NCBI GenBank assembly: GCA_016192425.1
Contig: JACPUE010000008.1
Location: forward strand, 1 to 41,230
Direction: 5' to 3'
Length of the DNA stretch: 41,230 nucleotides
Source of the DNA: Burkholderiales bacterium
Lineage (GTDB): Bacteria; Pseudomonadota; Gammaproteobacteria; Burkholderiales; Burkholderiaceae_C
Part shown: piece after piece, positions 3,890 through 35,885 of the stretch
Numbering within the stretch: the stretch's first letter is position 1
Layout: each line of letters starts with the position of its first letter
Position numbers and translations under genes: made by a program
The notes under the pieces: generated by a model
The model's input: only the letters and a program-made list of their open reading frames with translations
Told to the model about the DNA's origin: nothing
The model's database searches: none

Positions 3890-4840
3890 TCAGGGATTGT
3901 ACCAACGCAGCCCGTCGCCCTCGCGCACCACCGTTCCGCGCCCGGCCTTGAGGTGGATCTGGTGCCCGCGCGTGCGGCAGGCGTCGATCTGCACGAGCAG
4001 CGCCTGCAGTTGCGCCGCGCTGGGGGTGGTGTGGTGCGCCTGGCGCAGCCAGTGGCGCAGCACGTTGGCCTGGCGCGCACGGCCCAGTTGCTGCAGCGCG
4101 GCAATGCGCGGCGGGCTGCCCACCTGGGCCAGGTCTTGCGCTGCCAGTTCCTGCAGCAGCTCGCTGGCCTGCGCTGCGTGTGCGGCGCTGCGGGCAAAGG
4201 TGTCGCGGAAGGCGGGGAAGGCTGCTTCCAGCGCAGGCAGCAGTTGCGCCCGGATGCGGTTGCGTGTGTAGTGCGGGTCTTGGTTGCTGGGGTCCTCCAC
4301 CCAGCTTTGGCCGCGTGTGCGCAGCCAGTTGCGCAACTGCGCGCCGGGCACGCGCAGCAGCGGGCGGTGCCAGTGCAGCCCTGCAGCCTGCCAATGCGTC
4401 GGCATGGACGCCAGCCCCGCCACCCCGGCACCGCGCGACAGAGCCAGCAGCAGGGTTTCGATCTGGTCGTCTGCATGCTGCGCCAACGCTATTGATTTGA
4501 TAGCTAGTCCCGCAATACCAGCAAGCGCTGCAGCCTCCAAACATTGGTAGCGCACAATGCGTGCCGCGTCTTCAGGGCTTTGCCCCGGCGCTGCGCGCGC
4601 ATCCACACGCTGCACGGCCAGGGGTACGCCCAGGCGCTGGCACAGCGCAGTGCATTGCTGCTCGAAGGCATCGGCCGCATCCTGCAGGCCGTGGTGCACA
4701 TGGATGGCCGCCACCTGGCCGGGCCAGCGCTCTGCGCAGGCCAGCAGCAAGGCCGTGGAATCGGCACCCCCGCTGAAGGCCACGGCCAAGGGCAGCACGG
4801 GGGCGAAACCGGCCATGGCCTGGTCGAGCGCCAAGGTCAC
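3890..4840 (-). CDS. tilS: tRNA(Ile)-lysidine synthetase
   Basis: 316 residues from a GTG at 4838-4840 preceded by TTGGAG; the frame is open to 4924. The enzyme converts the wobble C of tRNA-Ile(CAU) to lysidine so that it reads AUA. The PP-loop motif SGGADS is at residues 23-28, HHGLQ at 49-53, QHADDQIETLLL just after 120, and WVEDPSNQD further on. Residues 98-119 (CLEAAALAGIAGLAIKSIAL) are encoded by a copy of the dispersed repeat at 4486-4547. Compared with what I recall of relatives, this stretch between RY and the HADDQ motif is about four residues longer. The product is probably still active because the gene is essential in most bacteria. Confidence 0.93.
   Translation of the reverse strand: MTLALDQAMAGFAPVLPLAVAFSGGADSTALLLACAERWPGQVAAIHVHHGLQDAADAFEQQCTALCQRLGVPLAVQRVDARAAPGQSPEDAARIVRYQCLEAAALAGIAGLAIKSIALAQHADDQIETLLLALSRGAGVAGLASMPTHWQAAGLHWHRPLLRVPGAQLRNWLRTRGQSWVEDPSNQDPHYTRNRIRAQLLPALEAAFPAFRDTFARSAAHAAQASELLQELAAQDLAQVGSPPRIAALQQLGRARQANVLRHWLRQAHHTTPSAAQLQALLVQIDACRTRGHQIHLKAGRGTVVREGDGLRWYNP
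4486..4547 (+). repeat. dispersed repeat copy 1, inside tilS
   Basis: Reads GCTATTGATTTGATAGCT, then AGCAAGCGCTGCAGCC and TCCAAA on the plus strand. It matches the layout of the other copies: an AT-rich dyad GCTAT...ATAGCT, then an AAGCGCTAGAGGCC block, then an AATTT/CAAA tail. It lies wholly within tilS, antisense to its reading direction. Confidence 0.8.
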
Positions 4841-4974
4841 GGCAGGGCTCCAAGAATTTGCACGGTACGCATGCGCCGATTGTGCGGCATGCCTTCTTGC
4901 ACGGACGCATGGCGCCACGGGCACAGCATGGCGCGGCGCGCTTCAGCCACCAGCGCGACGCAAGGAAAGCGGCG

Positions 4975-6783
4975 TCACGACGCCAGGCGGAAGCTCCCCA
5001 CCACCTCGGTCAGGCGCACGGACTGGTCCTTGAGGCTTTGCGCCGCGGCGGCGCTTTCTTCGACCAGGGCGGCGTTCTGCTGCGTCATCTGGTCCAGGTG
5101 GCCCACGGCCTGGCCCACCTCGGCAATGCTGGTGCTTTGCTCGTTGGTGGAGGCCGCGATCTCGGCCATGATGTCGGTCACGCGCTGCACCGCCTGCACT
5201 ACCTCAGACATGGTGGCGCCCGCATCGTGCACCAGGCGCGAGCCGTTGGAGACCTGCTCGACCGAGGTGCCAATGAGCTGCTTGATCTCCTTGGCCGCCC
5301 CGGCGCTGCGCCCTGCCAGTGCGCGCACTTCGCTGGCCACCACGGCAAAGCCGCGCCCCTGCTCACCCGCACGGGCGGCCTCGACAGCCGCGTTCAGCGC
5401 CAGGATGTTGGTCTGGAAGGCAATGCCGTCGATCACCTGGATGATGTCCTCGATCTTGCGCGAGGCGGCGTTGATCTGGTCCATGGTGCGCACCACGTCC
5501 CCCACCACCTGCCCGCCGCGCTGCGCCACGGTCGAGGCCTGGGCCACCATCTGGTTGGCCTGGCGTGCGGCATCGGCGTTGTGGCGCACGGTTTCGGTCA
5601 GCTGCTGCATCGATGCGGTGGTTTCCTCCAGGCTGGAAGCCGTCAGCTCGGTGCGGCTGCTCAGGTCCTGGTTGCCGGTGGCAATCTCCTCGGCCGCCAC
5701 GCGCACCGAGCCGCTGGCGTCGCGGATCTGCACCAGCACCCCGGCGAGCTTGCTGGCAAAGCTGTTGAAGCCTTCGGCAATCTGGGCCAGTTCGTCTTCA
5801 CCCTGGGCGTCGATGCGGCGCGAGAGGTCGCCCTCGCCCGAGCCAATGTTGCGCATGGCGTCGCGCACCTGCGTCAGGCGCCGCAGCCGCTGCGCCAGAA
5901 TGCCCGCCAGCACCGCACCAGCCACCACCAGCACCACCAGCCCGGTGAGCGCCGACACCTGCAGCATGGTGCCGATGGCCGACAGCGCCTCGGCCTTGTC
6001 CAGCGCAATGGCCAGCATCCAGCCCGTGCCCTCCACCGGCGCCACGGCCAGCAGCACCGCACGGCCTTGCAGGTCCATGGCCTGCAGGTCGGCGCTGCGC
6101 GCCATTTGCGCCAGCGCAGACGCCGACAACTGCGGCGAAAGTTCGGCCGCAGGCTTGAGGGCGAGCTTCACGTCGGGGTGGGCGATGATGTTGCCGTCAC
6201 TCCCTACCAGGAAGGCGTAGCTGGAGGGCGTGGGCTTGATCGAGGCCACGTTGGCCACCACCGCCGCCAGCGAAACGTCGCCCGCCAGCACGGCCTTGAC
6301 GTCGCTGCCCTGGCGCGCTGCCTGGGCAAAGGTCACCACCAGGCCGGCGCCGCCCGCATCGGCATAGGGCGCGGTCAGAATGCCCGCCTGCGCTGCGGCA
6401 GCCTGCTGGTACCAGGGGCGGGCCGTGGGGTCGTAGTCCGGCGGCAGGTTCTGCGGCTCGGAGAACACCGTGCGCTTGTCTGCGTAGCCAAAGTAGGTGG
6501 TGTGAAAGCTCCCGGCCTTTTGCAGCATGTTGAGGTAGCGCGCGGGGTCGGCCTCGTCCAGCACGGCAGCAGAGGACTGCACGATGGCGGCCTTGGCGCG
6601 CACCCAGTCGCGCAGGGCGTCGGTATGGCTCAGGGCCAGCGCGCGCGATTGGGCACTGAGCTGGCTGTAAGCCTGGCTGCGCGCCGTGAGGTAGTTGGCC
6701 GTGGCCAGGGCGCCCAGGCCTGCCAGCAGGCAGGCCACGCAAATCAGCAGGATCTGACCGCGCAGGGTCTTGAGGATGGCCAT
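4975..6783 (-). CDS. methyl-accepting chemotaxis protein, dCache sensor
   Basis: 602 residues from the ATG at 6781-6783, which follows an AGGAGAG ribosome binding site; a further in-frame ATG at 6804 is less likely. A membrane helix lies at about residues 8-31. A periplasmic dCache sensor region follows, with the signature [11 protein letters not shown], then a second helix ([16 protein letters not shown]) near residue 285. A HAMP domain ([23 protein letters not shown]) and a long cytoplasmic coiled coil complete it. The conserved hairpin tip reads [22 protein letters not shown]. There is no C-terminal CheR-binding pentapeptide. It signals to CheA/CheW; the ligand is unknown. It sits between accA and tilS. 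Confidence 0.95.
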
Positions 6784-6901
6784 GGTGCTCTCCTTGGGCC
6801 GCATGCTGCGGCAGCTTTGGAGGGCATATTACAACCGGACGCATTTTGCCATCCACGGGTTTGCACGCACCCGTGGGACGGGTGCGACACCACCTGCGAG
6901 A

Positions 6902-8056: not shown

Positions 8057-8716
8057 TCAATACGTCACCGGCAGCGGATCCAGCGAGCGCCAAATATACC
8101 AAGTGGCCACGCTGCACCAGGGCTGCCAGGCCTGGGCGACCTCGCGGGCGTCGCTGCGGCTGACCGGGTCGCCCGAAAAATAGTTCTGGCTGATGCCGTT
8201 GATGAGCCCCACGTCGTCCAGCGGCAGCACGTTGGGCCGCAGCAGATGGAAGATGAGGAACATCTCGGCCGTCCAGCGGCCGATGCCGCGGATAGCCACC
8301 AGCTCGGCGATGATGGCTTCGTCCTCCATGCCGTGCCAGCCGTCCACATGCAGCTTGCCCGCGTCGAAATGCAGGGCCAGATCCACCAGGTACTCGACCT
8401 TGCGCGCCGACAGGCCGGCGGCGCGCATGTCGTCGATCTTGAGCTTGAGCACGGCCGCAGGCGTCATGCGGCGCGGCAGCGCAGCAAAGCGGTCCCACAC
8501 CGTCTGCGCGGCCTTGACCGAGATCTGCTGGCCCACGATGCTGCGCGCCAGCGTGACGAAGGCATCCCCGCGCGACTGCAGCACGGCGTCGCCGTACTGC
8601 GGGATCAGGCGCTTCATCACCCGGTCCTTCTTCATGAGGTGCTTGCACGCCTCGGCCCAATAGCCGGGCGAGGCGGGGCCGGTGGCCTCGATTGCTATCT
8701 TTTTAGTAGCTGGCAC
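8057..8716 (-). CDS. DNA-3-methyladenine glycosylase (HhH-GPD superfamily, AlkA-like)
   Basis: 219 residues. Members excise alkylated purines from DNA. The helix-hairpin-helix and catalytic region reads LVAIRGIGRWTAEMFLIF followed by VLPLDDVGL, where the second Asp of the DD pair is the expected catalytic residue. FVTLARSIVGQQISVKAAQ is the usual N-terminal signature. The best start is GTG at 8714-8716, giving MPATKKIAIEATG. The first ten codons lie inside a dispersed-repeat copy, so this N-terminus was supplied or reshaped by the repeat; a start nearer YWAEACKHL is possible. cysS lies 45 bp upstream. Confidence 0.88.
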   Translation of the reverse strand: MPATKKIAIEATGPASPGYWAEACKHLMKKDRVMKRLIPQYGDAVLQSRGDAFVTLARSIVGQQISVKAAQTVWDRFAALPRRMTPAAVLKLKIDDMRAAGLSARKVEYLVDLALHFDAGKLHVDGWHGMEDEAIIAELVAIRGIGRWTAEMFLIFHLLRPNVLPLDDVGLINGISQNYFSGDPVSRSDAREVAQAWQPWCSVATWYIWRSLDPLPVTY

Positions 8717-8758
8717 CGCTTACCCCATAAGCCATGGAAGCCAATTTTTGCATCAAAA
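8689..8758 (+). repeat. dispersed repeat copy 2, between cysS and the glycosylase gene
   Basis: Reads ATTGCTATCTTTTTAGTAGCT, then CACCGCTTACCCCATAAGCC, GAAGCCAATTTTTGCATCAA on the plus strand. It begins inside the glycosylase gene, where it encodes the first ten codons in antisense, and ends just before the cysS stop at 8762. Confidence 0.8.
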
Positions 8759-8761: not shown

Positions 8762-10138
<1,377 letters not shown>

Positions 10139-11531: not shown

Positions 11532-12887
11532 ATGGGGTTTCTGGTGTCTCTGCGCGGCGCACTGGCTGCGCTGCTGTGCCTGCTGCTGTTGCAGCATGGC
11601 GCCGCCGTGCAGGCCAAAAACCAGGCCAGCCCCACCAAGGTGCGCGCCGCAGCGCCGCATGGCGCGCATTCCAAGGCTGCGCCACGCAGCACCCAGGCCG
11701 CGCGCAAGGCCCAGGCTGCGCAGCACAACAAGAAGCCCCGCCCTGCCACCGTACCCACGCCCCCCGCCCTGCGCGACGGCCAGGCCGAGGAGCGCCTGCT
11801 GCAGGTGCTGGAGCTCACGCGCCAGGGCCAGACGCGCGAAGCGCTGGCCAAAGCCGAGCGCCTGGCGCGTGACTACCCCCACTTCCAGCTCGCCCAGCTT
11901 GCCCTGGGCGACCTGCTGGCCGCCCGCACCCGCCCGCTGCAGCAGCCAGGCGACGTGCCCATCACCCTGCATGCCGAGGCCCGCACCACGCTGCAAGACC
12001 TGCGCACCGAGCTGCAACGCCGCGTGCAAGCCCACGGCGCCCGCCCTGCGCAGCAGAACGTGCCCTCGCAGTTCCTGGAACTGGCCCCGCGCTACCGCCA
12101 CGCCATTGCGGTGGATACCTCGCGCTCACGCCTGTATCTGTTCGAGAACACGCCGCAGGGCCTGCGCCTGGTGGCCGACTATTACGCCTCGGTAGGCAAG
12201 CTGGGCATCGAAAAATCGGTGGAAGGCGACCAGCGCACCCCGCTGGGCGTGTACTTCATCACCAGCCGCCTGGACCCGGCCACACTGCGCGACTTTTACG
12301 GCGCCGGGGCCCTGCCGCTGAACTACCCCAACCCGCTGGACCAGCTGCGGGGCAAGACCGGCAGCGGCATCTGGCTGCACGGCACGCCGCCCGAGCAATT
12401 CGCCCGCGCACCGCAGGCCACCGACGGCTGCGTGGCCCTGGCCAACCCCGACCTCGAACGCCTGCTGCGCACCGTGGAGCCGCGCACCACACCCGTGGTC
12501 ATCGCACGCCAGCTCGACTGGGTGGCGCCGCACAGCGTGCAGGCAGAACACAAAGCCTTCGAGGCCGCGCTGGACGGCTGGCGCAATGCCAAGACCGCAG
12601 GCGACATGCAGCGCCTGATGACCTTCTATGCCCCCGACTTCCAGGGCCAGCGCAAGGCCACCCTGGCCCAATGGGCCACCGAACTGCACGCCGAAACCCA
12701 GGCCCTGCGCGGGCGCGAGATCGAGCTCAAGGACAAGGCCATCCTGCGCTGGACCGACAGCATGGACACCATGGTGGTCACCTTTGGCGAGGTGGCTTCC
12801 GGGTCGCGCACCGGCCCCATCAAACGCCAGTTCTGGGCCCGCCGAGGCAAGCACTGGCAGATCATTTATGAAGGAGTGATTGGATGA
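11532..12887 (+). CDS. L,D-transpeptidase (YkuD family) with NTF2-like C-terminal domain
   Basis: 451 residues from the ATG at 11532; a TTG at 11517 in the same frame is the alternative. A signal sequence ([18 protein letters not shown]) is followed by a basic Ala-rich linker. The YkuD domain, about residues 185-340, has the motif [11 protein letters not shown] and the catalytic segment [12 protein letters not shown] (a GCVAL variant of SxGCxR, with Cys as nucleophile). Family members form or remodel 3-3 peptidoglycan crosslinks or attach proteins to the wall. The C-terminal region ([20 protein letters not shown] ... [11 protein letters not shown]) resembles the end of the preceding protein. 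The stop overlaps the ppiA start (ATGA), indicating translational coupling. Confidence 0.88.
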
Positions 12888-13465
12888 TTTCCAGAAGAAA
12901 GACGGCTCTAGCGCTTGCCAGCATTGCCGCAGCAGCTACTATTTTCATAGCACCCGTACATGCCCAGACGGCCCCCCGCGTCAAGCTCGCCACCAGCATG
13001 GGCGACATCGTGGTCGAACTCAACCCCGCCAAGGCGCCCAAGACGGTGGAGAACTTCCTGCAGTACGTGGCCGACAAGCACTACGACGGCACTATCTTCC
13101 ACCGCGTGATCGACGGCTTCATGGTCCAGGGCGGCGGCTTCACGGCCGACATGCAGCAAAAGCCCACCAAGGCGCCGATCCCGCTGGAGGCCGCCAACGG
13201 CCTGAAGAACGACACCTACACCATCGCCATGGCACGCACGGGCAACCCCCATTCCGCCACGGCACAGTTCTTCATCAATGTGAAGGACAATGCCATGCTC
13301 AACGCGCCCCAGCCTGACGGCCACGGCTACGCCGTGTTCGGCAAGGTGGTCTCGGGCACCGAGGTCGTGGACAAGATCAAGGGCGTGCCCACGGGCAACA
13401 AGGGCCCGTTCCAGAACGTGCCCACCACGCCTGTCACCATCACCTCGGCCACGCTGTTGAAGTAA
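12884..13465 (+). CDS. ppiA: periplasmic peptidyl-prolyl cis-trans isomerase (cyclophilin)
   Basis: 193 residues. A strong AAGGAG site lies 7 nt before the ATG. The signal peptide, residues 1 to about 28, ends PVHAQ. The cyclophilin fold follows with [35 protein letters not shown] and [18 protein letters not shown]. It would catalyse proline isomerisation in the periplasm. The hydrophobic core of the signal peptide (residues 7-23, [16 protein letters not shown]) is encoded by a reverse-oriented copy of the dispersed repeat at 12903-12952. The gene is coupled to the preceding L,D-transpeptidase gene and followed after 23 bp by its cytoplasmic paralogue. Confidence 0.94.
12903..12952 (-). repeat. 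dispersed repeat copy 3, encoding the ppiA signal-peptide core
   Basis: On the minus strand it reads TGCTATGAAAATAGTAGCTG, then GCAATGCTGGCAAGCGCTAG and AGCC. This is the same order of blocks as the free copies. The tail diverges. The plus strand of this copy is the coding strand of ppiA and has no stop in that frame. Confidence 0.78.
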
Positions 13466-13488
13466 GCCATTTTCTGAAGGAACCTGCC

Positions 13489-13995
13489 ATGAGCAACCCC
13501 CAAGTCGAACTGCACATCACCGGCTACGGTGTCATCACCCTCGAACTCGACGCCGAGAAAGCCCCCAAGTCCACGCAGAACTTCCTGTCCTACGTGAACA
13601 AGGGCCACTACAACAACACCGTCTTCCACCGCGTGATCCCCGGCTTCATGATCCAGGGCGGCGGCTTCGAGCCCGGCATGAACCAGAAGGGCACCGACGC
13701 CCCCATCGAGAACGAAGCCAAGAACGGCCTGAAGAACGCCAACTACACCGTCGCCATGGCCCGCACCAGCGACCCGCACTCGGCCACAGCGCAGTTCTTC
13801 ATCAACGTGGCCGACAACGGCTTCCTGAACCACACCGCCCCCAGCGCCCAGGGCTGGGGCTACGCCGTGTTCGGCAAGGTGATCTCGGGCACCGAGGTGG
13901 TGGACAAGATCAAGGCCGTCAAGACCGGCCGCAAGGGCTTCCACGACGACGTGCCCAAGGACGATGTGGTGATCGAAAAAGCGGTCGCCCTCTGA
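13489..13995 (+). CDS. ppiB: cytoplasmic peptidyl-prolyl cis-trans isomerase B
   Basis: 168 residues without a signal peptide, so cytoplasmic. Motifs are [39 protein letters not shown] and [17 protein letters not shown]. It is closely similar to the preceding PpiA, suggesting an old tandem duplication with different targeting. An AAGGAA ribosome binding site precedes the ATG. lpxH starts 16 bp downstream. Confidence 0.95.
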
Positions 13996-14796: not shown

Positions 14797-15618
14797 ATGC
14801 CCGCCTTTTTGAACCGCCTGCGCAACCGCTTGCGCAGCACCCTCGCCCCCGTACCCGACATCCCGGCCGAACTCTGGCTGGAAACGCTGCGGCGCCACCC
14901 CTTCCTCGCCGCCCTGGGCCTGCCCGAACAGGCCAAGCTGCGGGCCTTGAGCGCGCTGTTCCTCGACGGCAAACAGTTCCACGGCGCGCACGGGCTGGAA
15001 GTCACCGACGCCATGGCCATCGCCATCGCCGCCCAGGCCTGCCTGCCGCTGCTGCACTGGGGCGAACCGCACGATGCGCTGGGCTGGTACGACGACTTCG
15101 TCACCATCGTCGTGCACCCCGGCGAGGCCGTGGCCCGGCGCGAGCACATGGACGAAGCCGGGGTCATGCACCGCTACACCGAAGTGCTGGCGGGTGAAGC
15201 CATGGAACGCGGCCCGGTAATGCTGAGCTGGCAGCATGTGGAGGATGCAGCGCACAACGCCCAGCACGGCAGCAACGTGGTGGTGCACGAGTTTGTGCAC
15301 AAGCTGGACATGCGCAGCGGCCACGCCAACGGCTGCCCGCCCCTACCCGCAGGCTTCCTGGGCACCCACAGCGCCCGCGCCGCGCACGAGGCCTGGTGGG
15401 CCGCCTGGGAACCGGCCTACCAGCATTTCCGCGAGACCGTCATCAAGGCCGAGCGTTTTGGCACCGAATGGCCCTGGCTGGATGCCTATGGCGCCACCGC
15501 TCCTGCGGAGTTCTTCGCGGTGGCCTGCGAGGCCTACTTTGTGAACCGCGAGCGGTTTGCGCTGGAGTTTCCAGGGTTGGTGCCGGTGCTGGATGCGTTC
15601 TTTCGGCCTGGGGGCTGA
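14797..15618 (+). CDS. mtfA: zinc-dependent peptidase, MtfA family (M90)
   Basis: 273 residues. The zinc site HEFVHKLDM (HExxH) follows NVVVHE. The downstream acid lies in APAEFFAVACEAYF, the usual third-ligand region. Other family features are ALFLDGKQFHGAHGLEVTD near residue 50 and GWYDDFVTIVVHPGE. In E. coli MtfA cleaves peptides and binds the repressor Mlc; that regulatory role need not hold here. The ATG lies 5 bp after the lpxH stop, so it is the last gene of this operon. The stop codon touches a copy of the dispersed repeat. Confidence 0.93.
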   Translation: MPAFLNRLRNRLRSTLAPVPDIPAELWLETLRRHPFLAALGLPEQAKLRALSALFLDGKQFHGAHGLEVTDAMAIAIAAQACLPLLHWGEPHDALGWYDDFVTIVVHPGEAVARREHMDEAGVMHRYTEVLAGEAMERGPVMLSWQHVEDAAHNAQHGSNVVVHEFVHKLDMRSGHANGCPPLPAGFLGTHSARAAHEAWWAAWEPAYQHFRETVIKAERFGTEWPWLDAYGATAPAEFFAVACEAYFVNRERFALEFPGLVPVLDAFFRPGG

Positions 15619-15687
15619 TTTTCGTGTTCTAACTTGGCTCTAACGCTTACTGATATTGCGGTGGTAGCTATGCTTTTTATAGCTGCC
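15618..15687 (-). repeat. dispersed repeat copy 4, downstream of mtfA
   Basis: On the minus strand it reads AGCTATAAAAAGCATAGCT, then CCACCGCAATATCAGTAAGC, GTTAGAGCCAAGTT. Same block order as the other copies. It starts on the last base of the mtfA stop codon and lies just left of the large inverted-repeat element. Confidence 0.78.
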
Positions 15688-15693
15688 GCTGTG

Positions 15694-16178: not shown

Positions 16179-16197
16179 CCTACCAGCAAAGCACCCA

Positions 16198-18888
16198 TCA
16201 GCAAGCCGCCAACGCCGCCCGCACCACCGCCGCCGCATCCACCCCAAAAAACGCCCGCAATGCCGCCCGCGTATCGCTGCGCCCAAACCCATCGGTCCCC
16301 AGCGTGATGAAGCGACGCCCCGACGGCACGAAGGCACGCACCGTCTCGGGCACCGCGCGCACATAGTCGGTGGCGGCAATCACCGGCCCCTGCGTTCCCG
16401 CAAGTTGCTGCGTCAACCAAGGCACGCCAGGCTCGGCCTCGCCCGCCAGCGCGCGCTGCTCGCAGGCCACACCGTCGCGGGCCAGTTCGCTCCAGCTGGT
16501 CACGCTGAGCACGGTGACCTCCACACCCTCCGCAGCCAGCAGTTCAGCAGCCTTGACCACCTCGGTGAGGATGGCGCCGGAGCCCAGCAGGGTCACCGAT
16601 TTTTGGGATGAAATCGGCTCTCCACGCCCGTCCATCAAGCGCGAATAGCTATTGAATTGATAGCATCCACGCAGCACCCCCTCATGCACACCAGGCGGCA
16701 GATCGGGCTGGGCGTAGTTCTCGTTCATCAGCGTGACGTAGTAGAAAACGTCGCGCTGCTCGGTCACCATCTCGCGCATGCCGGCGTCCACGATCACGGC
16801 CATCTCGCCCGCGTAGGCCGGGTCGTAGGCCTTGCAGTTGGGGATGGTGGCCGCTACCAGGTGGCTGCTGCCGTCCTGGTGCTGCAGGCCTTCGCCGCCC
16901 AGCGTGGTGCGGCCCGAGGTAGCGCCCAGCAGGAAGCCGCGCGCGCGCTGGTCGGCGGCGGCCCAGATGGCGTCGCCCACGCGCTGGAAGCCGAACATGG
17001 AGTAGTAGATGTAGAACGGCAGCATGGCCAGGCCGTGCACGCTGTAGCTGGTGGCCGCCGCCGTCCAGCTGGCGATGGCCCCGGCCTCGCTGATGCCTTC
17101 TTCGAGGATCTGTCCGTCCAGCGCCTCGCGGTAGCTCAGCACCGAGCCAATGTCCTCGGGCGCGTAACGCTGGCCCACGCTGCTGTAGATGCCGACCTGC
17201 TTGAACAGGTTGGCCATGCCGAAGGTGCGCGCCTCGTCGGCCACGATGGGCACGATGCGCGGGCCGAGCGCAGTGTCCTTGAGCAGCGTGCCCAGCATGC
17301 GCACGAAGGCCATGGTGGTGCTCATCTCCTTGCCATCGGCCGCCAGCGCGAACTGCGCGTAGCTGGCAATGGGCGGCACGGGCAGCGCGTCGCACGCCGT
17401 CTCGCGCCGGGGCAGGTAGCCGCCCAGTTGCTGGCGGTGGCGGCGCAGGTACTGCATTTCGGCGCTGTCTTCCTGCGGCTTGTAGAAGGCCAGGCCGGTG
17501 GCCTGCGCGTCGCTGAGCGGCAGGTTGAAGCGGTTGCGGAATTCGATGAGGTCACCGTCGTCCAGCTTTTTCTGGCTGTGCGTGGTCATCTTGCCCTGGC
17601 CCGCCGCGCCCATGCCGTAGCCCTTCTTGGTGTGGGCCAGGATGACGGTGGGCTGGCCCTTGTGGGCGGCGGCTGCGGCATAGGCGGCGTGGATCTTCAC
17701 CAGGTCGTGCCCGCCGCGCTTGAGGCGGTCGATCTGCTCGTCCGTCATGCCCTGGGCCAGCGCAGCCAACTCAGGGTTCTGGCCGAAGAAGTTGTCGCGG
17801 TTGAAGCGGCCGTCCTTGGCGGCGAAGGTCTGCATCTGGCCGTCCACCGTGCCTTCGAGCGTGCGCACCAGCGCGCCGGTGAGGTCGCGGGCGAACAGGC
17901 CGTCCCAGTCGCTGCCCCAGACGAGCTTGACCACGTTCCAGCCCGCGCCAGCGAACAGGCGCTCCAGCTCGTCGATGATGCGGCCGTTGCCGCGCACCGG
18001 GCCGTCCAGGCGCTGCAGGTTGCAGTTGACCACCCAGACCAGGTTGTCCAGTCCCTCGCGCGCGGCGAGCGTCAGCGCGCTCATGCTCTCGGGCTCGTCC
18101 ATCTCGCCATCGCCGAACACGCCCCACACGCGCCGCATCGCGGTGCGTCCTTCTGTGTCTTTGCGGCCAGCGCAGTCCAGCAGTCCGCGGTGCGTGAGGT
18201 AGCGCATGAAGCGCGCGTGGTAGATGCTGCTGATGGGACCGATGCCCATGGAGCCCGTGGGGAACTGCCAGAAATCGGGCATGAGCCAGGGATGCGGGTA
18301 GCTGCTGAGGCCGCGCGCACCCACGCCAGGCGCGGTGATTTCCTGGCGGTAGTGCATGAGGTCCTGCTCGCTCAAACGCCCTTCAAGGAAGGCGCGCGCG
18401 TACACGCCCGGCGCGCTGTGCGGCTGGAAGAACACCAGGTCGCCCCGGTGCTGGCCCGCGCTCAGGCCCTCGCGGGCGTGGAAGAAGTGGTTAAAGCCGG
18501 TCTCGAACAGGTCGGCCGCGCTGGCGTAGCTGGCGATGTGGCCGCCCAGTTCGCCATAGGCCTGGTTGGCGCGCACCACCATGGCCAGCGCGTTCCAACG
18601 CATGATGGACGCGAGCCGCTCTTCGATGGCCAGGTCGCCGGGGAAAACGCCCTGGTCCTGCACGGCCACGGTGTTCACATACGGCGTGTTCAGGCCCGGC
18701 TGCCAGCCCACGCGCTGGGCGCGTGCCATGCGCGCCAGTTCATCGAGCACGAAGCGCGCGCGCTCGGGGCCTTCGGTGGCCACCAGGGCGAGGAAGGCCT
18801 CGCGCCACTCGGCGGTTTCCTGGGGGTCGGTGTCCTCGGGCAAGCCTGCGGGGCGCACGAGGGCCTGGGGTGGGATGGGTGCATTCAT
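16198..18888 (-). CDS. homodimeric E1 of a 2-oxoacid dehydrogenase (AceE/MdeB type)
   Basis: 896 residues from the ATG at 18886-18888 (a GTG three codons earlier is possible). It is a thiamine-diphosphate E1 of the AceE type. Motifs are GDGEMDEPESMSA, LVWVVNCNLQRLDGPVRGNG, QHQDGSSHL and YYVTLMNENYAQP. No E2 or E3 gene is nearby, unlike a usual pyruvate dehydrogenase operon. Its neighbour is methionine gamma-lyase, which makes 2-oxobutyrate, so by analogy with mdeB of Pseudomonas putida it may oxidise 2-oxobutyrate to propionyl-CoA. That role is inference; pyruvate remains possible. Residues about 741-764 (QFNSYSRLMDGRGEPIS and flanks) are encoded by a dispersed-repeat copy and seem about ten residues longer than in E. 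coli AceE. Confidence 0.88.
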   Translation of the reverse strand: MNAPIPPQALVRPAGLPEDTDPQETAEWREAFLALVATEGPERARFVLDELARMARAQRVGWQPGLNTPYVNTVAVQDQGVFPGDLAIEERLASIMRWNALAMVVRANQAYGELGGHIASYASAADLFETGFNHFFHAREGLSAGQHRGDLVFFQPHSAPGVYARAFLEGRLSEQDLMHYRQEITAPGVGARGLSSYPHPWLMPDFWQFPTGSMGIGPISSIYHARFMRYLTHRGLLDCAGRKDTEGRTAMRRVWGVFGDGEMDEPESMSALTLAAREGLDNLVWVVNCNLQRLDGPVRGNGRIIDELERLFAGAGWNVVKLVWGSDWDGLFARDLTGALVRTLEGTVDGQMQTFAAKDGRFNRDNFFGQNPELAALAQGMTDEQIDRLKRGGHDLVKIHAAYAAAAAHKGQPTVILAHTKKGYGMGAAGQGKMTTHSQKKLDDGDLIEFRNRFNLPLSDAQATGLAFYKPQEDSAEMQYLRRHRQQLGGYLPRRETACDALPVPPIASYAQFALAADGKEMSTTMAFVRMLGTLLKDTALGPRIVPIVADEARTFGMANLFKQVGIYSSVGQRYAPEDIGSVLSYREALDGQILEEGISEAGAIASWTAAATSYSVHGLAMLPFYIYYSMFGFQRVGDAIWAAADQRARGFLLGATSGRTTLGGEGLQHQDGSSHLVAATIPNCKAYDPAYAGEMAVIVDAGMREMVTEQRDVFYYVTLMNENYAQPDLPPGVHEGVLRGCYQFNSYSRLMDGRGEPISSQKSVTLLGSGAILTEVVKAAELLAAEGVEVTVLSVTSWSELARDGVACEQRALAGEAEPGVPWLTQQLAGTQGPVIAATDYVRAVPETVRAFVPSGRRFITLGTDGFGRSDTRAALRAFFGVDAAAVVRAALAAC
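16599..16667 (-). repeat. dispersed repeat copy 5, in frame inside the E1 gene
   Basis: On the minus strand (the coding strand) it reads GATGCTATCAATTCAATAGC, then CGCGCTTGATGGACGGGCGT, GGAGAGCCGATTTCATCCCA, AAAATCGG. All blocks of the repeat are present and no stop codon is created. Confidence 0.8.
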
Positions 18889-18990
18889 GGTCGCCACTCT
18901 ATTCCTTGGCTGGCAAAACAGGGTGCTGATTTGCGGGCAAAATCAACCGCCCGCAGCACAAAATTCCAAATCCAAAATCCAACGCAGCAT

Positions 18991-27717: not shown

Positions 27718-27756
27718 AGTTCTCCCCTTGATTCGCTGCATGGTAGCGTCAACGCA

Positions 27757-27790
27757 GTTGCTACATTTCAATAGCTGTCTGCGCACACTC
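27757..27790 (+). repeat. dispersed repeat copy 6, degenerate
   Basis: Reads GTTGCTACATTTCAATAGCT, then GTCTGCGCACACTCCACC. The left dyad is recognisable; the right half is lost or diverged. It lies in the gap upstream of the NYN gene. Confidence 0.5.
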
Positions 27791-27848
27791 CACCGTGGTC
27801 ATGTCCCGATTTCGTACCTAGCCGAGGCCTTTCCGTAGACTTCCAACC

Positions 27849-28175
27849 ATGCACCCCGCCATCGCCCAACACCGCCCCGGCATTTCCGCCATCTAACAGC
27901 GCTACGGTATTCGATGGCTGGAATTGTTTGGATCGGCGGCACGGGCCACTGACTTTGACCCGGCCCGCAGCGACGCCGATTTTTTGGTGGAGTTTGCGCC
28001 GGGCGTTGCGCCTGAGCTCCACACGATTCTTGGCACAAAAGCCGATCTGGAAGCACTGCTGGGCCGGAGCGTGGACTTGGTGGAGCCGGGCTCGGTGCAC
28101 AACCCCTATGTGTTGGCCAGCATCAACCGCCACCGCGTGATCATCTTTTTGGACGAGCACTCGCTATCGTTTTAG
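27849..28175 (+). pseudogene. MntA-type nucleotidyltransferase, interrupted by a stop codon
   Basis: Translation from the ATG at 27849 gives MHPAIAQHRPGISAI, a TAA at 27894-27896, then in the same frame QRYGIRWLELFGSAARATDF and SDADFLVEFAPG. The nucleotidyltransferase motif GSAARx(n)SDxD is intact, so a single nonsense codon separates the start from the catalytic part. A TTG at 27924 could start a shorter protein, but it would begin inside the motif. The last four codons and the stop lie in repeat copy 7. No HEPN partner follows. Minimal nucleotidyltransferases of this kind act as antitoxins to HEPN RNases by AMPylating them. Confidence 0.75.
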
Positions 28176-28225
28176 TAGCTGCTGGCGCAATCGCTGAAAG
28201 CGCTGGAGGCCAATTTACCTCCTAA
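28162..28225 (+). repeat. dispersed repeat copy 7, at the end of the first MNT remnant
   Basis: Reads CGCTATCGTTTTAGTAGCTG, then AAAGCGCTGGAGGCCAATTT and ACCTCCTAAAAA. It supplies the stop codon of the MNT remnant (TAG at 28173-28175) and stands where a HEPN partner gene would be expected. Confidence 0.8.
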
Positions 28226-28252
28226 AAACGCAGCACCGCTAAACTCCAAACC

Positions 28253-28543: not shown

Positions 28544-28707
28544 GCCGGGCGCGCCCGCTGCGGGTGGGAGACTACTCGCAGCACATCCTGGAGGCCATCG
28601 GCAGCATTCAGGATCACACGGCTGGTATGGACCTGGGCATCGTCTGGCAAACCGTGCAGAACGATCTACCAACGCTCAAGGCGCAAGTAGCAGCACTCTC
28701 GCTTTAG
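28540..28707 (+). pseudogene. HEPN (HepT/DUF86) toxin with the catalytic core deleted
   Basis: 55 codons, open from ATG to TAG. Residues 1-30 (LRVGDYSQHILEAIGSIQDH and TAGM) match the start of HepT-type proteins. Residues 31-55 (DLGIVWQTVQNDLPTLKAQV) match the end of the same family. The middle, usually about 55-60 residues containing the RX4-6H RNase motif, is absent, with the frame kept. The peptide cannot be an active RNase. It might still bind the antitoxin, or be an inert remnant. The stop codon lies at the edge of repeat copy 8. Confidence 0.8.
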
Positions 28708-28772
28708 ATTGCTACTGTTTCGATAGCTACCTACGCTTATCCATCAAGCTCTAGAGGCCAATTTCATCCAAA
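28707..28772 (+). repeat. dispersed repeat copy 8, after the deleted HEPN gene
   Basis: Reads GATTGCTACTGTTTCGATAG, then CTACGCTTATCCATCAAGCT and CTAGAGGCCAATTTCATCCA. It is one of the best-preserved copies and begins on the last base of the HEPN remnant's stop codon. Confidence 0.85.
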
Positions 28773-28799
28773 GAACTGCAGCACCACCAAAGCCCATCC

Positions 28800-31424: not shown

Positions 31425-32795
31425 ATGCCTTTTCCCTCTCGCTGGCCGACTCGGCTTGTTTTCTCTCTCCTTTGGCTGGCCTACGGCCTGGCCAGTGCCC
31501 AGAACCCACCCATCGCTGCGGATGCGCCCGGCGCCTCTGCCTCTGCTGCGCAACCCGCCGCAGCGCAGGAGGCCGCGCTCTCGCGCGATGCCCGGCGCAT
31601 CCATGCGCTGTCGCGCGACAAGCTGCTGCAGATCCGCACGCTGCTGCGCAGCTCGGCCACCCAGGCGTCGATCGGTTCGGGCTTTTTCGTGTCGCCCGAC
31701 GGGCTGATCGTGACCAACTTCCATGTGGCCAGCCAATTGGCGCTGGAGCCCGAGCGCTACCGTGGCGTGTACGTCACCATCGACGGGCAGGAGGGCGATG
31801 TCGATCTGCTGGCGTTTGATGTGCAGCACGACGTGGCCGTACTGCGCGCGCGCAACCGCACGGCCCCCGCGCCCGTGCTGGAGTTCCGCCCCGCCGCCGA
31901 GGCCCTGGCCCAGGGCGAGCGCATCTACTCGCTGGGCAACCCGCTGGACATTGGCTTTGCCGTGACCGAGGGCACCTATAACGGCCTGGTGCGGCGCAGT
32001 TTTTACCCGCGCATCTTCTTTGGCGGCACGCTCAACCCCGGCATGAGCGGCGGCCCCGCCGTAGATGACGCAGGGCGCGTGCTGGGCGTGAACGTGGCCA
32101 AGCGGCTCGATGGCGAGCAGGTGAGCTTTCTCATCCCGGCCGAGTTTGCCCAGGCCCTGGTGCAGCGCGCAGCCAGCGCCCAGCCCATCACGCAGCCCGC
32201 CCACAAGGAGGTGGCGCGGCAACTGTTGGTGCACCAGCAATTGCTGACCGAGCGCTTTTTGCAAACCCCCTTCCAGGAGCAGCGCCACGGCAGCTACCTG
32301 GTGCCGGTACCCGACGACGCGCTTGCGCGCTGCTGGGGCGCCGGGCGCGACCCGGACTTTCACGCAATGCACCTGGAGCGCACCACCTGCCAGGCCAACA
32401 GCCATGTGATGGCGGGCGACTTCAGCACCGGCACGGTGCAATTGGGCTACGAGGCCTTCAACGCCCCCAGCTCTGGCGCTGCGCGGTTTGCCCACCTGTA
32501 TGCGCAACACTTCGGCAACGAGCGTTTGCCCAAGCGCGGCAATCGCCACAAGACGGCACCCGAATGCGCCGAGCGCTATGTGAACCCCGGCAAGCTGCCG
32601 CTGCGCGCGGTGGTCTGCATGGCGGCCTACCGCAAGCTGCCGGGCCTGTACGACATGACCGTGCTGGCCGCCACGCTCAACCAGCCCACGCAGGGCGTGC
32701 TGGGCCGCCTGGAAGTACGCGGCATTGCCTTTGACAACGGCCTGAAGCTGGCGGAGCACTACCTGCAGGCCTTCAAGTGGGAGGCCGCGCCATGA
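31425..32795 (+). CDS. periplasmic trypsin-like serine protease with unique C-terminal domain
   Basis: 456 residues. The signal peptide ends near SAQ at residue 26. The protease fold carries the catalytic triad in IVTNFHVAS (His), DVQHDVAVLRA (Asp) and LNPGMSGGPAVD (Ser), as in the DegP/HtrA class. There is no PDZ domain. The last 200 or so residues (EVARQLLVHQQLLTERFLQT to YLQAFKWE) are unlike anything I recognise and hold four cysteines (RCWG, TTCQ, PECAE, VVCMA) that could form two disulfides. The stop overlaps the next gene's ATG (ATGA), coupling it to an FHA membrane protein. Confidence 0.9.
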   Translation: MPFPSRWPTRLVFSLLWLAYGLASAQNPPIAADAPGASASAAQPAAAQEAALSRDARRIHALSRDKLLQIRTLLRSSATQASIGSGFFVSPDGLIVTNFHVASQLALEPERYRGVYVTIDGQEGDVDLLAFDVQHDVAVLRARNRTAPAPVLEFRPAAEALAQGERIYSLGNPLDIGFAVTEGTYNGLVRRSFYPRIFFGGTLNPGMSGGPAVDDAGRVLGVNVAKRLDGEQVSFLIPAEFAQALVQRAASAQPITQPAHKEVARQLLVHQQLLTERFLQTPFQEQRHGSYLVPVPDDALARCWGAGRDPDFHAMHLERTTCQANSHVMAGDFSTGTVQLGYEAFNAPSSGAARFAHLYAQHFGNERLPKRGNRHKTAPECAERYVNPGKLPLRAVVCMAAYRKLPGLYDMTVLAATLNQPTQGVLGRLEVRGIAFDNGLKLAEHYLQAFKWEAAP

Positions 32796-33775
32796 TGCCC
32801 ACACTTGCACTGCTGGAGGCCTTTGACCGCCACGGCGCGCTGCTGGCGCGCGCACCCGTCACGCGCTGGCCCATCACCGTGGGCCGCAGCCTGGAATGCG
32901 ACCTGGTGCTGGACGACCCGCATGTGGCCCCCACGCACCTGCACATCGACCGGCAGGCCGACGCGCCCCGCACCGTGAGCGTGGAGGTGCAGCACACCCT
33001 CAACGGCGCCCTGCTGCAGCGCCAGCGCCACGGCAGCGGCCAGCGCTTCGACTGGCCCGACGGCGCGCCGCTGGAGATCGGCCGCACGCGCATTGCGCTG
33101 CGCCTGGCCGATGCGCCCATCGCCAGCGAGCTGGCGCTGCCCCGCTTCCCCTGGCGCACGCTGGCCGCCACCATGGCCCTGCTGGCGCTGATGCTGGCCG
33201 CCGCGCTGGGCGCCGAATGGCTGAAGGCCGACGATGCCTCCAAGTTTTTCAAATCGCTGCCCGGCACACTGTTTGGCCTGACGCTGGCAATGGGCGGCTG
33301 GGCAGGCCTGTGGGCGATTGCCAACAAAGTGTTCGACGGCCACCTGCAGTTCTGGCGCCACATGCGCATCGCCTGCGCCCTGTACCTGGGGGCCGAAGCC
33401 GTGGCGCTGGCGGCCAACCTGGGAGCGTTCGCGCTGTCGTGGGAGGCCCTCTCGCGCTTTGGCTTTGTGCCCATCACCATGGTGACGGCCGCAGGCATCT
33501 ACGCCCACCTGGCCGCCGTGCTGCCCCGCCGCCGCACCGGCCTGGCCTGGACGGTGGGCACCGTGCTGGCCCTGGGCATACCGGCTTGGCTGGGGGCGCA
33601 GTGGCTCAACCACTCGCGGCTGTCGAACGAGCTGTACATGAGCAGCCTGTTCCCACCCAGCCTGCGTGTGGCCCCCGCCGTGCCCGTGCCACAGTTCATG
33701 CAGGAAGCCGGTGCGCTGCGCGGGCGGCTCGACCAGCGCATGAACACCGACGGAGAAGGCGAGGAGGAGGAGTGA
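32792..33775 (+). CDS. FHA-domain membrane protein
   Basis: 327 residues. A forkhead-associated domain occupies about residues 25-110: ITVGRSLECDLVLDDPHVAP and THLHID correspond to the GR and SxxH-type phosphothreonine-binding loops (here PTHLH). Five predicted membrane helices follow (TLAATMALLALMLAAALGA and four more), then a Glu-rich C-terminal tail. FHA domains read phosphothreonine, so the protein would place such a reader at the inner membrane. Translation is coupled to the periplasmic protease gene, which suggests a joint function. No kinase gene is nearby. Confidence 0.87.
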   Translation: MMPTLALLEAFDRHGALLARAPVTRWPITVGRSLECDLVLDDPHVAPTHLHIDRQADAPRTVSVEVQHTLNGALLQRQRHGSGQRFDWPDGAPLEIGRTRIALRLADAPIASELALPRFPWRTLAATMALLALMLAAALGAEWLKADDASKFFKSLPGTLFGLTLAMGGWAGLWAIANKVFDGHLQFWRHMRIACALYLGAEAVALAANLGAFALSWEALSRFGFVPITMVTAAGIYAHLAAVLPRRRTGLAWTVGTVLALGIPAWLGAQWLNHSRLSNELYMSSLFPPSLRVAPAVPVPQFMQEAGALRGRLDQRMNTDGEGEEEE

Positions 33776-33804
33776 CGGGGACACCGCCGCCTCATCCATG
33801 ATTC

Positions 33805-33872
33805 ATTTGCTACTATTTTTATAGCTTCCAGCGCTTTATCCTCAGGCCCCAGAGGCCATTTCCATTCAAAAA
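33805..33872 (+). repeat. dispersed repeat copy 9
   Basis: Reads ATTTGCTACTATTTTTATAG, then TCCAGCGCTTTATCCTCAGG, CCCCAGAGGCCATTTCCATT. Intergenic, between the FHA gene and the DUF2322-like gene. Confidence 0.85.
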
Positions 33873-33908
33873 ATTACCCTGCAGGGCCCAACCATCCAGT
33901 CCATCGCC

Positions 33909-34226: not shown

Positions 34227-34351
34227 CGGGGCGCTGGCACGGTGCCGCTGCCCGGGCGCTGCAGAGAAAGCCTGATCGGCGTACAGTGGGCGCCGGGTCG
34301 TGCCGCCCCGGACCTTGTCGGCACCGCTGTTCCCTCGAAAGGAGCCCGCCC

Positions 34352-34816: not shown

Positions 34817-34883
34817 ATGGATTTCACGCAATGGTGCAGGCACATGGGTTACCCTCGGGCCCCACCCACCATTGGAGCGCACC

Positions 34884-35135: not shown

Positions 35136-35140
35136 GCCTC

Positions 35141-35725
35141 TCAGTCTTCCTGCGGCTCTGCTGGGGCGAGGTAGCTGCGCACCAGGTCAAAAAAGCTGTC
35201 GTAAAACGGCTCGCTGGCAATCGTCTCGCTGCCCACCCTGACCAGCGCCTCGCTGCTCGCCGTCAGGGGCACCGACAACGAGCCGATGCCGCCCACGCCC
35301 AGGCTCGCGGAGTTGCTCACCTTCTTGACCGTGTAACGGTCTTGCACCGCCGTCACAAAGCCCGTGCTGAGCACGCCTTGCGGCGCATCGGGCACGCAGA
35401 CCACGCGGATGAGGATTTCCAGATGCGATTCGGCGTCGGGCTGGAAATTCTTGCGCCCCTCCACCTGCTCGGCCGAGGCACCCTGGATCAGGTAGCCCTG
35501 GCTCAGCAAGGCACGGCGCGCAGCCTCGCAGGTTTGCGCAGGAGCCGCATCAAACAAGCGCGAGTAAGTGGCCACGGAACTGAAACGCTCTTGCGGCCCG
35601 TAGTGTGGTGGCGGGGGTGTTGTGCACCCGGCCAGCAGAGGCACGAGCCACAGGCCACGGCGCAGGGCGGGCCACAGAAAACGCAGGGGCAGAGGCAGGC
35701 TTTGCAAGGTACAGGTTCCGGTCAT
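35141..35725 (-). CDS. lipoprotein, DUF2242-like
   Basis: 194 residues from the ATG at 35723-35725. The lipobox LLAGC places the lipidated Cys at about residue 34, so it is probably outer-membrane anchored. The body (FSSVATYSRLFDAAPAQTCE, QDRYTVKKVSNSASLGVGGI and YDSFFDLVRSYL) matches what I recall of DUF2242, a betaproteobacterial family of unknown role. Confidence 0.78.
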   Translation of the reverse strand: MTGTCTLQSLPLPLRFLWPALRRGLWLVPLLAGCTTPPPPHYGPQERFSSVATYSRLFDAAPAQTCEAARRALLSQGYLIQGASAEQVEGRKNFQPDAESHLEILIRVVCVPDAPQGVLSTGFVTAVQDRYTVKKVSNSASLGVGGIGSLSVPLTASSEALVRVGSETIASEPFYDSFFDLVRSYLAPAEPQED

Positions 35726-35817
35726 GGTGCACGCCAGGGTGCCCGGCGATAGAGGCGCCTTGTGGGCGCAAGTTCCACGCCATTCTAGAACCAGCCACAG
35801 CACGGCTGCGCCACATG

Positions 35818-35885
35818 ATTTGCTATTATTTTTATAGCTATCAACGCTTATTGCACGGGCGCTTTGGGCCAGTTTTCTTCAAAAA
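35818..35885 (+). repeat. dispersed repeat copy 10
   Basis: Reads ATTTGCTATTATTTTTATAG, then CTATCAACGCTTATTGCACG, GGCGCTTTGGGCCAGTTTTC and TTCAAAAA. Intergenic, in the 243-bp gap between the lipoprotein gene and the acyl-CoA ligase gene. Confidence 0.85.

What the first reader, a model, noticed from the sequence alone, without database searches (positions are those of the whole stretch)
4486..35885. Family of ten short dispersed repeats, about 65 bp each
Ten copies (4486, 8689, 12903, 15618, 16599, 27757, 28162, 28707, 33805, 35818) share one layout: an AT-rich dyad TTGCTAT-N6-ATAGCT, a CGCTTAT-like block, AAGCGCTAGAGGCC, then AATTT and a CAAA tail. They occur on both strands, have no ORF, and are AT-rich in a GC-rich background. 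One copy per 4 kb is dense. Half touch or enter coding sequence, often exactly at stop codons. I associate the sequence with Comamonadaceae but know of no description of its mobility or function. It could be a very small MITE-like element or a REP-type element moved by a host enzyme.
Basis: partly seen in the sequence, partly recalled or inferred. Interest (0 to 1): 0.8.

Follow-up and report, generated by a model that had tools for sequence, protein, structure and literature searches.

The report
Dispersed, in-place-conserved 62-bp chromosomal DNA motif
Hundreds of copies of a roughly 62-letter DNA pattern sit at the ends of genes and inside genes of one bacterial family; they look like sites kept in place, sometimes over ordinary protein code, rather than like a jumping element, and what reads them is unknown.

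Summary
The ten repeats are real: a covariance model's ten best hits in the window are those ten (nine strong, 27756 weak), and a strict pattern has 255 hits in the genome against 2 reversed. The dyad spacer is N7, not N6. A moving MITE or REP is not supported: where flanks align in congeners a copy is present in 42 of 45 comparisons, 31 of 32 with matching gap lengths. Some copies overlie older coding sequence: one without any gap against E. coli YbdL, one on the TINxIA motif of the CCA-adding enzyme. At 19 loci high-information columns differ in 5% of cells, low-information ones in 23%. Orientation to genes is even, pairing does not covary, divergent gaps are poor in copies. The motif is confined to one family, patchily. 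RAYT linkage is weak. Best reading: a duplex-DNA recognition motif kept in place by selection or drive; no reader protein was found. One, perhaps two, fragments were printed in 2017, unexplained.

The parts
4484..4552 (+). copy 1, inside the tilS-like gene called at 3890-4840 (-), antisense to it, next to the AQHxDDQ stretch
   Evidence: E 8e-13; alignment to E. coli TilS (1ni5) shows 6 extra residues here; orthologous, element-like by eye, in the 7 congeners aligned, scored as a copy in 3 of 3
8690..8758 (+). copy 2, between two - strand genes, 5 bp from the stop of 8762-10138
   Evidence: orthologous sequence in the 7 congeners aligned, scored as a copy in 3 of 3
12887..12955 (-). copy 3, over the first codons of the + strand ORF 12884-13465 (signal-peptide-like, by reading), antisense to it; my gene caller put the start downstream, so it is not among the 28 'inside' copies
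   Evidence: orthologous sequence in the 6 congeners aligned, scored as a copy in 3 of 3
15619..15687 (-). copy 4, directly after the stop of the gene 14797-15618
   Evidence: copy in G022, part of dyad 1 missing in G023
16600..16668 (-). copy 5, in frame inside an aceE-type gene 16198-18897 (-), sense
   Evidence: relatives
27756..27823 (+). copy 6, degenerate, between divergent genes
   Evidence: (E 1e-4)
28159..28227 (+). copy 7, overlapping the end of a small ORF 27987-28175
28707..28775 (+). copy 8, intergenic
33805..33873 (+). copy 9, intergenic, 33 bp after the stop of 32792-33775; best-scoring window copy
   Evidence: copies near the site in G022 and G023 with about 1.7 kb more DNA between the flanks, none in G003
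35818..35886 (+). copy 10, intergenic between two - strand genes
33809..33825 (+). dyad 1 (model columns 5-21) shown on copy 9: GCTAY-N7-RTAGC with an A/T centre; the best conserved part
   Evidence: column frequencies; orthologue divergence
33828..33852 (+). dyad 2 (columns 24-48) shown on copy 9: CTxGCGCTT-N7-AAGCGCTRG
   Evidence: pairing counts
33858..33871 (+). tail (columns 54-67) shown on copy 9: WWW at 56-58, A-rich at 65-67

Best explanation
A family-specific DNA recognition motif of about 62 bp, read as double-stranded DNA, with two clear inverted-repeat dyads and a weaker tail, their centres about 23-25 bp apart. Each copy is kept in place at its locus by selection or drive and can form inside genes by base changes and small insertions; no spread to new places was detected between congeners. 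SHOWN: copies are real, confined to one family, found at orthologous places, constrained at particular columns, even in orientation to genes, poor in divergent gaps, and in some genes superimposed on older protein code. INFERRED: a sequence-specific protein or complex, present in copy-rich genomes and lost or changed in copy-free ones, reads the motif on the chromosome; after its loss the copies decay. I think a chromosome-structure role (a nucleoid protein, or a gyrase-type topology site at gene 3' ends, given the order convergent > co-directional > divergent) a little likelier than DNA uptake. The confidence is for the class (constrained in-place DNA motif), not for the protein.
For: Orthologues: 42 of 45 comparisons at 26 loci hold a copy, 31 of 32 with gap lengths within 20 bp; 21 of 22 in reverse. 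Constraint at 19 loci: columns >= 1.1 bits differ in 23 of 456 cells, columns < 0.7 bits in 143 of 627 (p about 4e-17); columns chosen from genome G003: 47 of 532 against 127 of 570. In place: copy C8:188586 aligns to E. coli YbdL with no gap. CCA enzyme: dyad 1 on TINxIA; element (HMM >= 14 bits over both dyads) in 14 of 17 copy-rich genomes, 1 of 7 family genomes with 0-1 strict copies, 0 of 2 outgroups, 4 of 30 not recovered; the last Ile of the motif is ATA in 15 of 17 against 1 of 7, where ATA is 2.2% of Ile codons. Orientation: inside genes 14 sense, 14 antisense; co-directional gaps 23, 24. Copies per gap class: convergent 17 in 16.5 kb, co-directional 47 in 84.6, divergent 6 in 32.4. 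Range: 45 of 299 family genomes have >= 50 strict hits (my count); at most 2 in any of 194 order genomes outside the family.
Against: No reader protein was found. Copies carry about 63 bits where about 14 would mark 430 sites, an excess also expected from common descent. Beside several in-gene copies there are extra residues against relatives or PDB homologues (CCA enzyme +4 to +17 where the element is detected, AceE about +6, TilS 6, an oxidase 9), so some insertion took place. One site is empty in the own genome. Three of 17 copy-rich genomes lack the CCA-enzyme copy. Low-information columns diverge more than the flanks I kept (0.22 against 0.14; flanks over 40% different were left out), as gene conversion could also give. 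In G003 the strand listing hints at a leading-strand bias. The orthologue tests are within one genus; the in-gene cases were picked by me, not drawn at random; the low-G+C cut was chosen after seeing the data.
Confidence: 0.55

Rival explanations
1. DNA uptake (self-recognition) sequence. Competent cells prefer fragments bearing the motif, and recombination of those fragments spreads and repairs it in place, as for the Neisseria DUS and Haemophilus USS.
For: In-place origin over coding sequence, no orientation preference to genes, orthologous stability, scarcity in the lowest-G+C windows, more information than site-finding needs, whole sets present or absent by lineage.
Against: One per 8.6 kb is sparse beside known uptake sequences, and 62 bp is far longer (comparison recalled). 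Spacing is not more even than random (CV 1.16 against 1.04). In a search for the phrase with three genera of the family none of the 15 papers listed (of 666) held it.
Confidence: 0.2
2. Fossil mobile repeat: an old MITE-like or REP-like element spread in an ancestor of the family, then lost mobility; copies persist and some were co-opted.
For: High shared information, extra residues beside several in-gene copies, the empty site next to a pre-existing GCTAG, copies over stop codons.
Against: Gapless in-gene copy; dyad 1 on residues that relatives without the element also have; column-specific constraint; no target duplication seen at the one empty site.
Confidence: 0.15
3. REP element moved now by a RAYT (TnpA-REP) enzyme, or a currently mobile MITE.
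For: RAYT-like gene in 31 of 34 copy-rich against 17 of 25 copy-poor genomes (p 0.04 without phylogenetic correction); small palindromes.
Against: Own genome with 255 strict copies has only a sub-cutoff match that lacks HxH; 2 of 30 RAYT or IS200-type loci hold dyad 1; no pairing covariation beyond shuffles; one empty site in 22.
Confidence: 0.05
4. RNA element: terminator, mRNA-stability hairpin or 3' UTR signal.
For: 24 of 64 copies with an upstream stop start 1-9 bp after it (no control run); T/G and A/T variants in dyad 2 are compatible with wobble pairs.
Against: No strand preference against genes; pairing no better than shuffles; between orthologues single changes in dyad 2 make or break a pair 34 times and keep it 22 times; no Rfam match at the window copies at gathering threshold or at the copies in ten loci at E 0.5.
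Confidence: 0.05

Closest known systems
Spaced motif pairs GCTTAT(N)5AAGCG of Acidovorax ebreus TPSY (114 copies) and ATAGCT(N)22CAAAAG of Polaromonas naphthalenivorans CJ2 (125 copies), PMC5217627 (section 13 read; one passage of section 12)
   Same: The first fits model columns 29-34 and 40-44 exactly and has the same bias (44 convergent, 4 divergent, 59 co-oriented gaps; generally < 50 bp from genes). Same family of bacteria.
   Different: Only short pieces were reported; section 13 gives no full element, orthologue, constraint or explanation. That the second pair is the same element in Polaromonas form is my inference; the seven Polaromonas copies I printed do not show CAAAAG at those columns.
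DNA uptake sequences (DUS of Neisseriaceae, USS of Pasteurellaceae); PMC2397512, PMC3630211, PMC2346458, PMC1939737 seen as listing and abstract starts only
   Same: Works like: dispersed, chromosomal, in and between genes, kept in place.
   Different: About 62 bp in several blocks, about 1 per 8.6 kb, strongly intergenic; uptake not tested.
REP/BIME and RAYT systems (PMC3116915, PMC2817692, PMC8266576 seen as listing and abstract starts; PMC3733652 and PMC6006769 searched for six names each of genera or groups, none present)
   Same: Short palindromes, hundreds of copies, 3' ends of genes.
   Different: No gathering at RAYT genes, copies in reading frames, orthologous stability. REPIN-type inverted pairs were not tested for.
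Beta-proteobacterial repeat element BRE (PMC3110155, section 14 read)
   Same: Dispersed repeat in overlapping taxa, some copies inside genes.
   Different: About 90 bp, 69% G+C, tandem arrays, at most 29 copies per genome. Its alignment is in a figure not held, so no direct comparison was made.
Rickettsia palindromic elements and ERIC (recalled, no call)
   Same: Repeats within reading frames, or conserved between species.
   Different: Not compared here.

Membership tests
REP moved by RAYT | RAYT gene co-distributed with the repeat | tested here: inconclusive
   RAYT-like in 31 of 34 copy-rich, 17 of 25 with 0-4 copies, 3 of 3 with 15-20 copies (p 0.04). Own genome sub-cutoff, HxH lost.
REP moved by RAYT | repeats flanking the RAYT gene | tested here: not met
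   Dyad 1 in 2 of 30 loci of about 3.3 kb, about what chance density gives; the own-genome RAYT locus L143 was not in that scan.
REP moved by RAYT | conserved single-strand hairpin | tested here: not met
   Pairing no better than shuffles of partners. Pairing does beat partners slid by 1-3 columns, as the palindromic consensus alone would give.
MITE | clean empty sites in close relatives | tested here: not met
   Copy present in 42 of 45 (31 of 32 strict) and 21 of 22; one unpolarised empty site. Only species-level relatives available.
MITE | target-site duplication | tested here: inconclusive
   None seen at the one empty site.
DNA uptake sequence | arises and is kept in place over coding and non-coding DNA | tested here: met
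   with extra residues at other loci.
DNA uptake sequence | raises uptake of DNA by competent cells | not testable with these tools
   Needs an experiment.
DNA uptake sequence | spacing more even than random | tested here: not met
   CV 1.16 against 1.04, sd 0.10.
Protein-binding or chromosome-structure site | DNA-level, orientation-independent, column-specific constraint | tested here: met
Protein-binding or chromosome-structure site | bound by an identified protein | not tested
   No candidate was searched for beyond PF01797.
Known Rfam RNA | match to a curated family | tested here: not met
   Window: one tRNA only at gathering threshold; ten loci bearing copies: two weak matches, neither at a copy.

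The most novel reading that the evidence does not exclude
A new kind of genome-wide self-identity sequence: a multi-block motif of about 62 bp, several times longer than any uptake or segregation motif I know of, that a lineage-specific machine reads as double-stranded DNA and that is written into place over existing genes, down to a conserved motif of the CCA-adding enzyme, in one bacterial family.
Probability: 0.25. Interest if true: 0.9.

Novelty: new variant of a known kind. Interest (0 to 1): 0.7.

Why it matters
Dispersed bacterial repeats are usually filed as selfish leftovers. Here hundreds of copies of a long pattern appear constrained at fixed columns and in some genes laid over protein code, which points to a trans-acting reader that I know no description of in this family. 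The motif may also mark DNA of Comamonadaceae origin elsewhere: a copy lies in a cassette ORF of a class 1 integron on an enterobacterial plasmid.

Tried and rejected
RNA structure: a two-hairpin model counted on 34 copies and on 30 orthologue pairs from 19 loci; dyad 2 is not kept by pairing beyond what its consensus gives. Two loci that looked compensatory by eye (C8:76596, C8:99709) did not make a trend.

RAYT co-distribution. The first count (32 of 34, p 0.013) included G022, whose only match is IS200-like; recounted as 31 of 34, p 0.04. G022 was not in the draw and counts as copy-rich from 47 copies in 292 kb. For 8 of 30 loci my script did not recover the protein.

Replication-strand polarity: my first figure for G003 (94 of 157) was a miscount. 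A recount of the listing, which is cut at 100 of 157 rows, gives 98 of 157 on the presumed leading strand (p 0.002), if both strands are complete to 1.93 Mb and the origin is at position 1, neither of which I could check. Own contigs are mixed. A modest bias is possible, a near-total one is not.

Regular spacing: not found. Gene conversion between copies: considered for fast-changing interiors, not excluded.

Low-G+C stretches: 0 copies in the eight 10-kb windows under 0.61, 9.3 expected; with the cut at 0.63, 8 copies in 16 windows, 18.6 expected. Both cuts were set after seeing the table. A 44-kb stretch of normal G+C on C1 also has none. Ten proteins from such gaps gave no integrase or structural phage protein, so they are not shown to be acquired islands.

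Plasmids and phages: one copy as blastn query found no phage record and 32 plasmid records, another no plasmid record. 47 viral contigs hold a strict pattern, 35 with a profile hit; how much is host flank was not worked out.

DUF1010: a cassette ORF with that label contains a copy; of nine own-genome ORFs over copies in that frame one reached PF06231, at E 0.034, below cut-off. That the Pfam family begins as a translation of this motif is only a lead.

Conserved columns were first picked partly from the same pairs, then redefined from profile information and from G003. Literature: listings in a held open-access library; no paper printing the element was seen there, and subscription journals are mostly not covered.
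Full report
OBSERVATION. A covariance model made from 34 copies of the own genome (eight of them in the window) was run without filters on the window: its ten best hits are the ten listed, nine with E <= 3e-12 and 27756 with 1e-4. The strict pattern GCTAYN7RTAGCTN5CGC has 255 exact hits in 3,667,790 bases of own genome and 2 for the reversed pattern. A profile HMM from 50 copies finds 96 in 841 kb and none in the reversed sequence; adding model hits gives 98, about 430 per genome by extrapolation. The spacer of the first dyad is 7, not 6.

ANATOMY. In a gapless frame of 69 columns: dyad 1, (T)GCTAY-NN-WWW-NN-RTAGCT, columns 4-22; dyad 2, CTxGCGCTT-N7-AAGCGCTRG, columns 24-48; then GAGGCC, WWW at 56-58 and A-rich 65-67. 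Columns 12-14 and 56-57 are A or T in 98-100% of 50 copies although the sampled genome is 65% G+C. Total information is 63.5 bits in 79 copies and 60.9 bits with nearly the same consensus in 30 pattern-selected copies of congener G003; about 14 bits would mark 430 sites.

WHERE COPIES SIT. By my own gene caller 28 of 98 copies are inside genes, 47 in co-directional gaps, 17 in convergent, 6 in divergent; these gaps make up 84.6, 16.5 and 32.4 kb. Convergent exceeds divergent (p 2e-4) and co-directional (p 0.04), and co-directional exceeds divergent (p 0.006). Orientation is even: 14 sense and 14 antisense inside genes, 23 and 24 in co-directional gaps. Of 64 copies with an upstream stop, 20 overlap it and 24 begin 1-9 bp after it; no control was run for this crowding. 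The eight 10-kb windows of G+C below 0.61 (of 84) hold no copy, 9.3 expected; with the cut at 0.63, 8 copies in 16 windows against 18.6; the cuts were chosen after the fact. Ten proteins from copy-free stretches are transport, metabolic, kinase, cyclase, O-antigen-ligase-like and secretin proteins, one DUF and one VapE-like, so these stretches are not shown to be acquired.

RANGE. Of 299 family genomes 101 have at least one strict hit and, by my count of the table, 45 have 50 or more, the own genome included. Congeners differ sharply: G103 211 and G270 283 against G197 0 and G329 0; G118 79 and G210 216 against G280 0; G151 185 and G235 209 against G300 1. Of 200 genomes drawn from the order, six are of the own family; of the other 194, four have 1 or 2 hits, the level of the control. 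In those 80 loci the HMM finds 13 copies in 107 kb of Acidovorax and 7 in 83 kb of Polaromonas, and 0 in 230 kb of Variovorax; as the loci centre on a gene that can carry a copy, the first two are biased upward.

STABILITY. Own copies were compared with the stretches I held of congeners G022, G023, G012 and G003. For 26 of 96 copies both flanks aligned, in 45 comparisons; 42 hold a copy. In 32 comparisons at 20 loci the gap between flanks agrees within 20 bp, and 31 hold one. The three without: 15619 in G023 (part of dyad 1 missing), 28707 in G023 and 33805 in G003 (different intervening DNA). 28159 and 28707 share one copy in G022 and are ambiguous. In reverse 47 copies of G022 were tested, 22 mapped, 21 hold a copy. 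The exception, at own C8:152284, has about 53 bp more in G022, beginning at a GCTAG that both genomes share as the end of a gene; gain and loss cannot be told apart.

CONSTRAINT. Over 19 loci (one relative each) columns of at least 1.1 bits differ in 23 of 456 cells, those under 0.7 bits in 143 of 627; choosing columns from G003 gives 47 of 532 and 127 of 570. A copy must be recognised to be compared, which favours conservation, but 42 of 45 places had one. Conserved-column matches are equal in own and relative (21.4 and 21.5 of 22), so the set is not visibly decaying in this genus. Inside genes the contrast holds on six loci (3 of 132 against 37 of 282). Pairing does not explain it: on 34 copies standard pairs are no commoner than with shuffled partners; between orthologues in dyad 2 single changes make or break a pair 34 times and keep it 22 times, and 4 of 12 double changes keep it. 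With partners slid by 1-3 columns fewer single changes keep a pair (7-16), as a palindromic consensus by itself predicts.

IN-GENE COPIES. I looked at six of the genes, picked because their families are recognisable. In a YbdL-like aminotransferase (copy C8:188586, model E 4e-11) the alignment to E. coli YbdL runs through the element with no gap. In an acetoacetate-CoA ligase there are two single-residue gaps inside the element region and one just after it. TilS has 6 extra residues, a glycine-oxidase-like protein 9 in a weak alignment. In the CCA-adding enzyme dyad 1 lies on TINxIA, which outgroups have too; the last Ile is ATA in 15 of 17 copy-rich genomes and 1 of 7 family genomes with 0-1 strict copies. 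Of 26 sequences recovered from 30 genomes the element (HMM >= 14 bits over both dyads) is found in 14 of 17, 1 of 7 and 0 of 2 outgroups (p 0.004 within the family, relatedness ignored); G210, G219 and G096, all copy-rich, lack it. The segment after TINxIA is longer than the outgroups' 23 residues (motif start to end) in most of the family, also in some copy-free genomes, so an insertion belongs to the history there. In AceE dyad 1 lies on GCYxFxxY, which several Variovorax and a Bordetella-labelled MAG share without the element, Zwartia having GTYxFxxY; the element is found in 21 of 76 named segments recovered (80 tried) and in no Variovorax. G103 shows a worn, G197 and G094 a lost version.

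MECHANISM. Shown: a real, family-limited set of copies, constrained at given columns, even in orientation to genes, partly formed over older code. Inferred: a protein or complex reads it as duplex DNA. Even orientation and the lack of covariation speak against RNA and single-strand hairpin processing; near-absence of empty sites speaks against present movement. Crowding at stop codons is what I would expect if useless spacer is deleted up to a needed site (inference). Between the chromosome-structure and uptake forms the data do not decide: 3'-end and convergent enrichment favours the first, in-place writing and excess information the second.

RAYT. PF01797 matches 32 of 34 copy-rich, 17 of 25 with 0-4 strict hits, 3 of 3 with 15-20. 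G022's only match is IS200-like, leaving 31 of 34 (p 0.04). The own genome's match is below cut-off and reads SRYHL where all 21 other proteins recovered keep HxH. Dyad 1 occurs in 2 of 30 RAYT or IS200-type loci.

PRIOR ART. Two spaced motif pairs in PMC5217627: the first is a piece of this motif by register; the second is only likely to be. The authors gave counts and positions and no explanation. Six consensus words are not in the held library; a search for RAYT with Comamonadaceae gave no paper. BRE (PMC3110155) differs in base content, size and number.

SCORES. Class 'in-place constrained DNA motif' 0.55, uptake form 0.20, fossil mobile repeat 0.15, active RAYT or MITE 0.05, RNA 0.05. The recounts made while checking did not require a change of odds.

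Noticed in passing
window 15690-16180: A second, different intergenic repeat directly beside copy 4: pieces recur on own contig C67 and in G022, G023 and G003, with an internal inverted repeat (15932-15968 / 16004-16040) and the string TTTCTTTCGCTTCGCCGAAAGAAAG. Rfam: only three weak microRNA-family matches far below gathering.
   Followed up: partly
L397:2863-3108 (plasmid pKPN5, NC_009651): A copy of the motif (41.9 bits) lies in an ORF labelled DUF1010 in a class 1 integron, between aadB and a YciI-family ORF; the same blastn search found 32 plasmid records, 20 shown, 18 of those with this label. It suggests a Comamonadaceae origin for that cassette.
   Followed up: partly
L143:1126-1827 and L118-L142: A RAYT-like gene, mostly one per genome, is widespread in the family with and without the repeats; in the own genome its NHxHL stretch reads SRYHL and it falls below the Pfam cut-off.
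   Followed up: partly
window 12991-13957: Tandem duplication: blocks of 300 and 125 nt repeat at 74-76% identity about 530 nt apart, across two neighbouring ORFs after copy 3.
   Followed up: no
window 38127-38356: Stretch of near-tandem units spaced 15 nt or multiples of 3, GCGAGCGC-rich, inside a called gene.
   Followed up: no
own contigs C59:4491-76574, C23:24611-51336, C67:60050-86687, C1:53469-97757: Long stretches without copies; the first three are 60-62% G+C, the last 65% with a VapE-like protein.
   Followed up: partly
G022 beside own C8:90771 and C8:130749: About 150-160 bp of other DNA stands next to the orthologous copy in G022.
   Followed up: no
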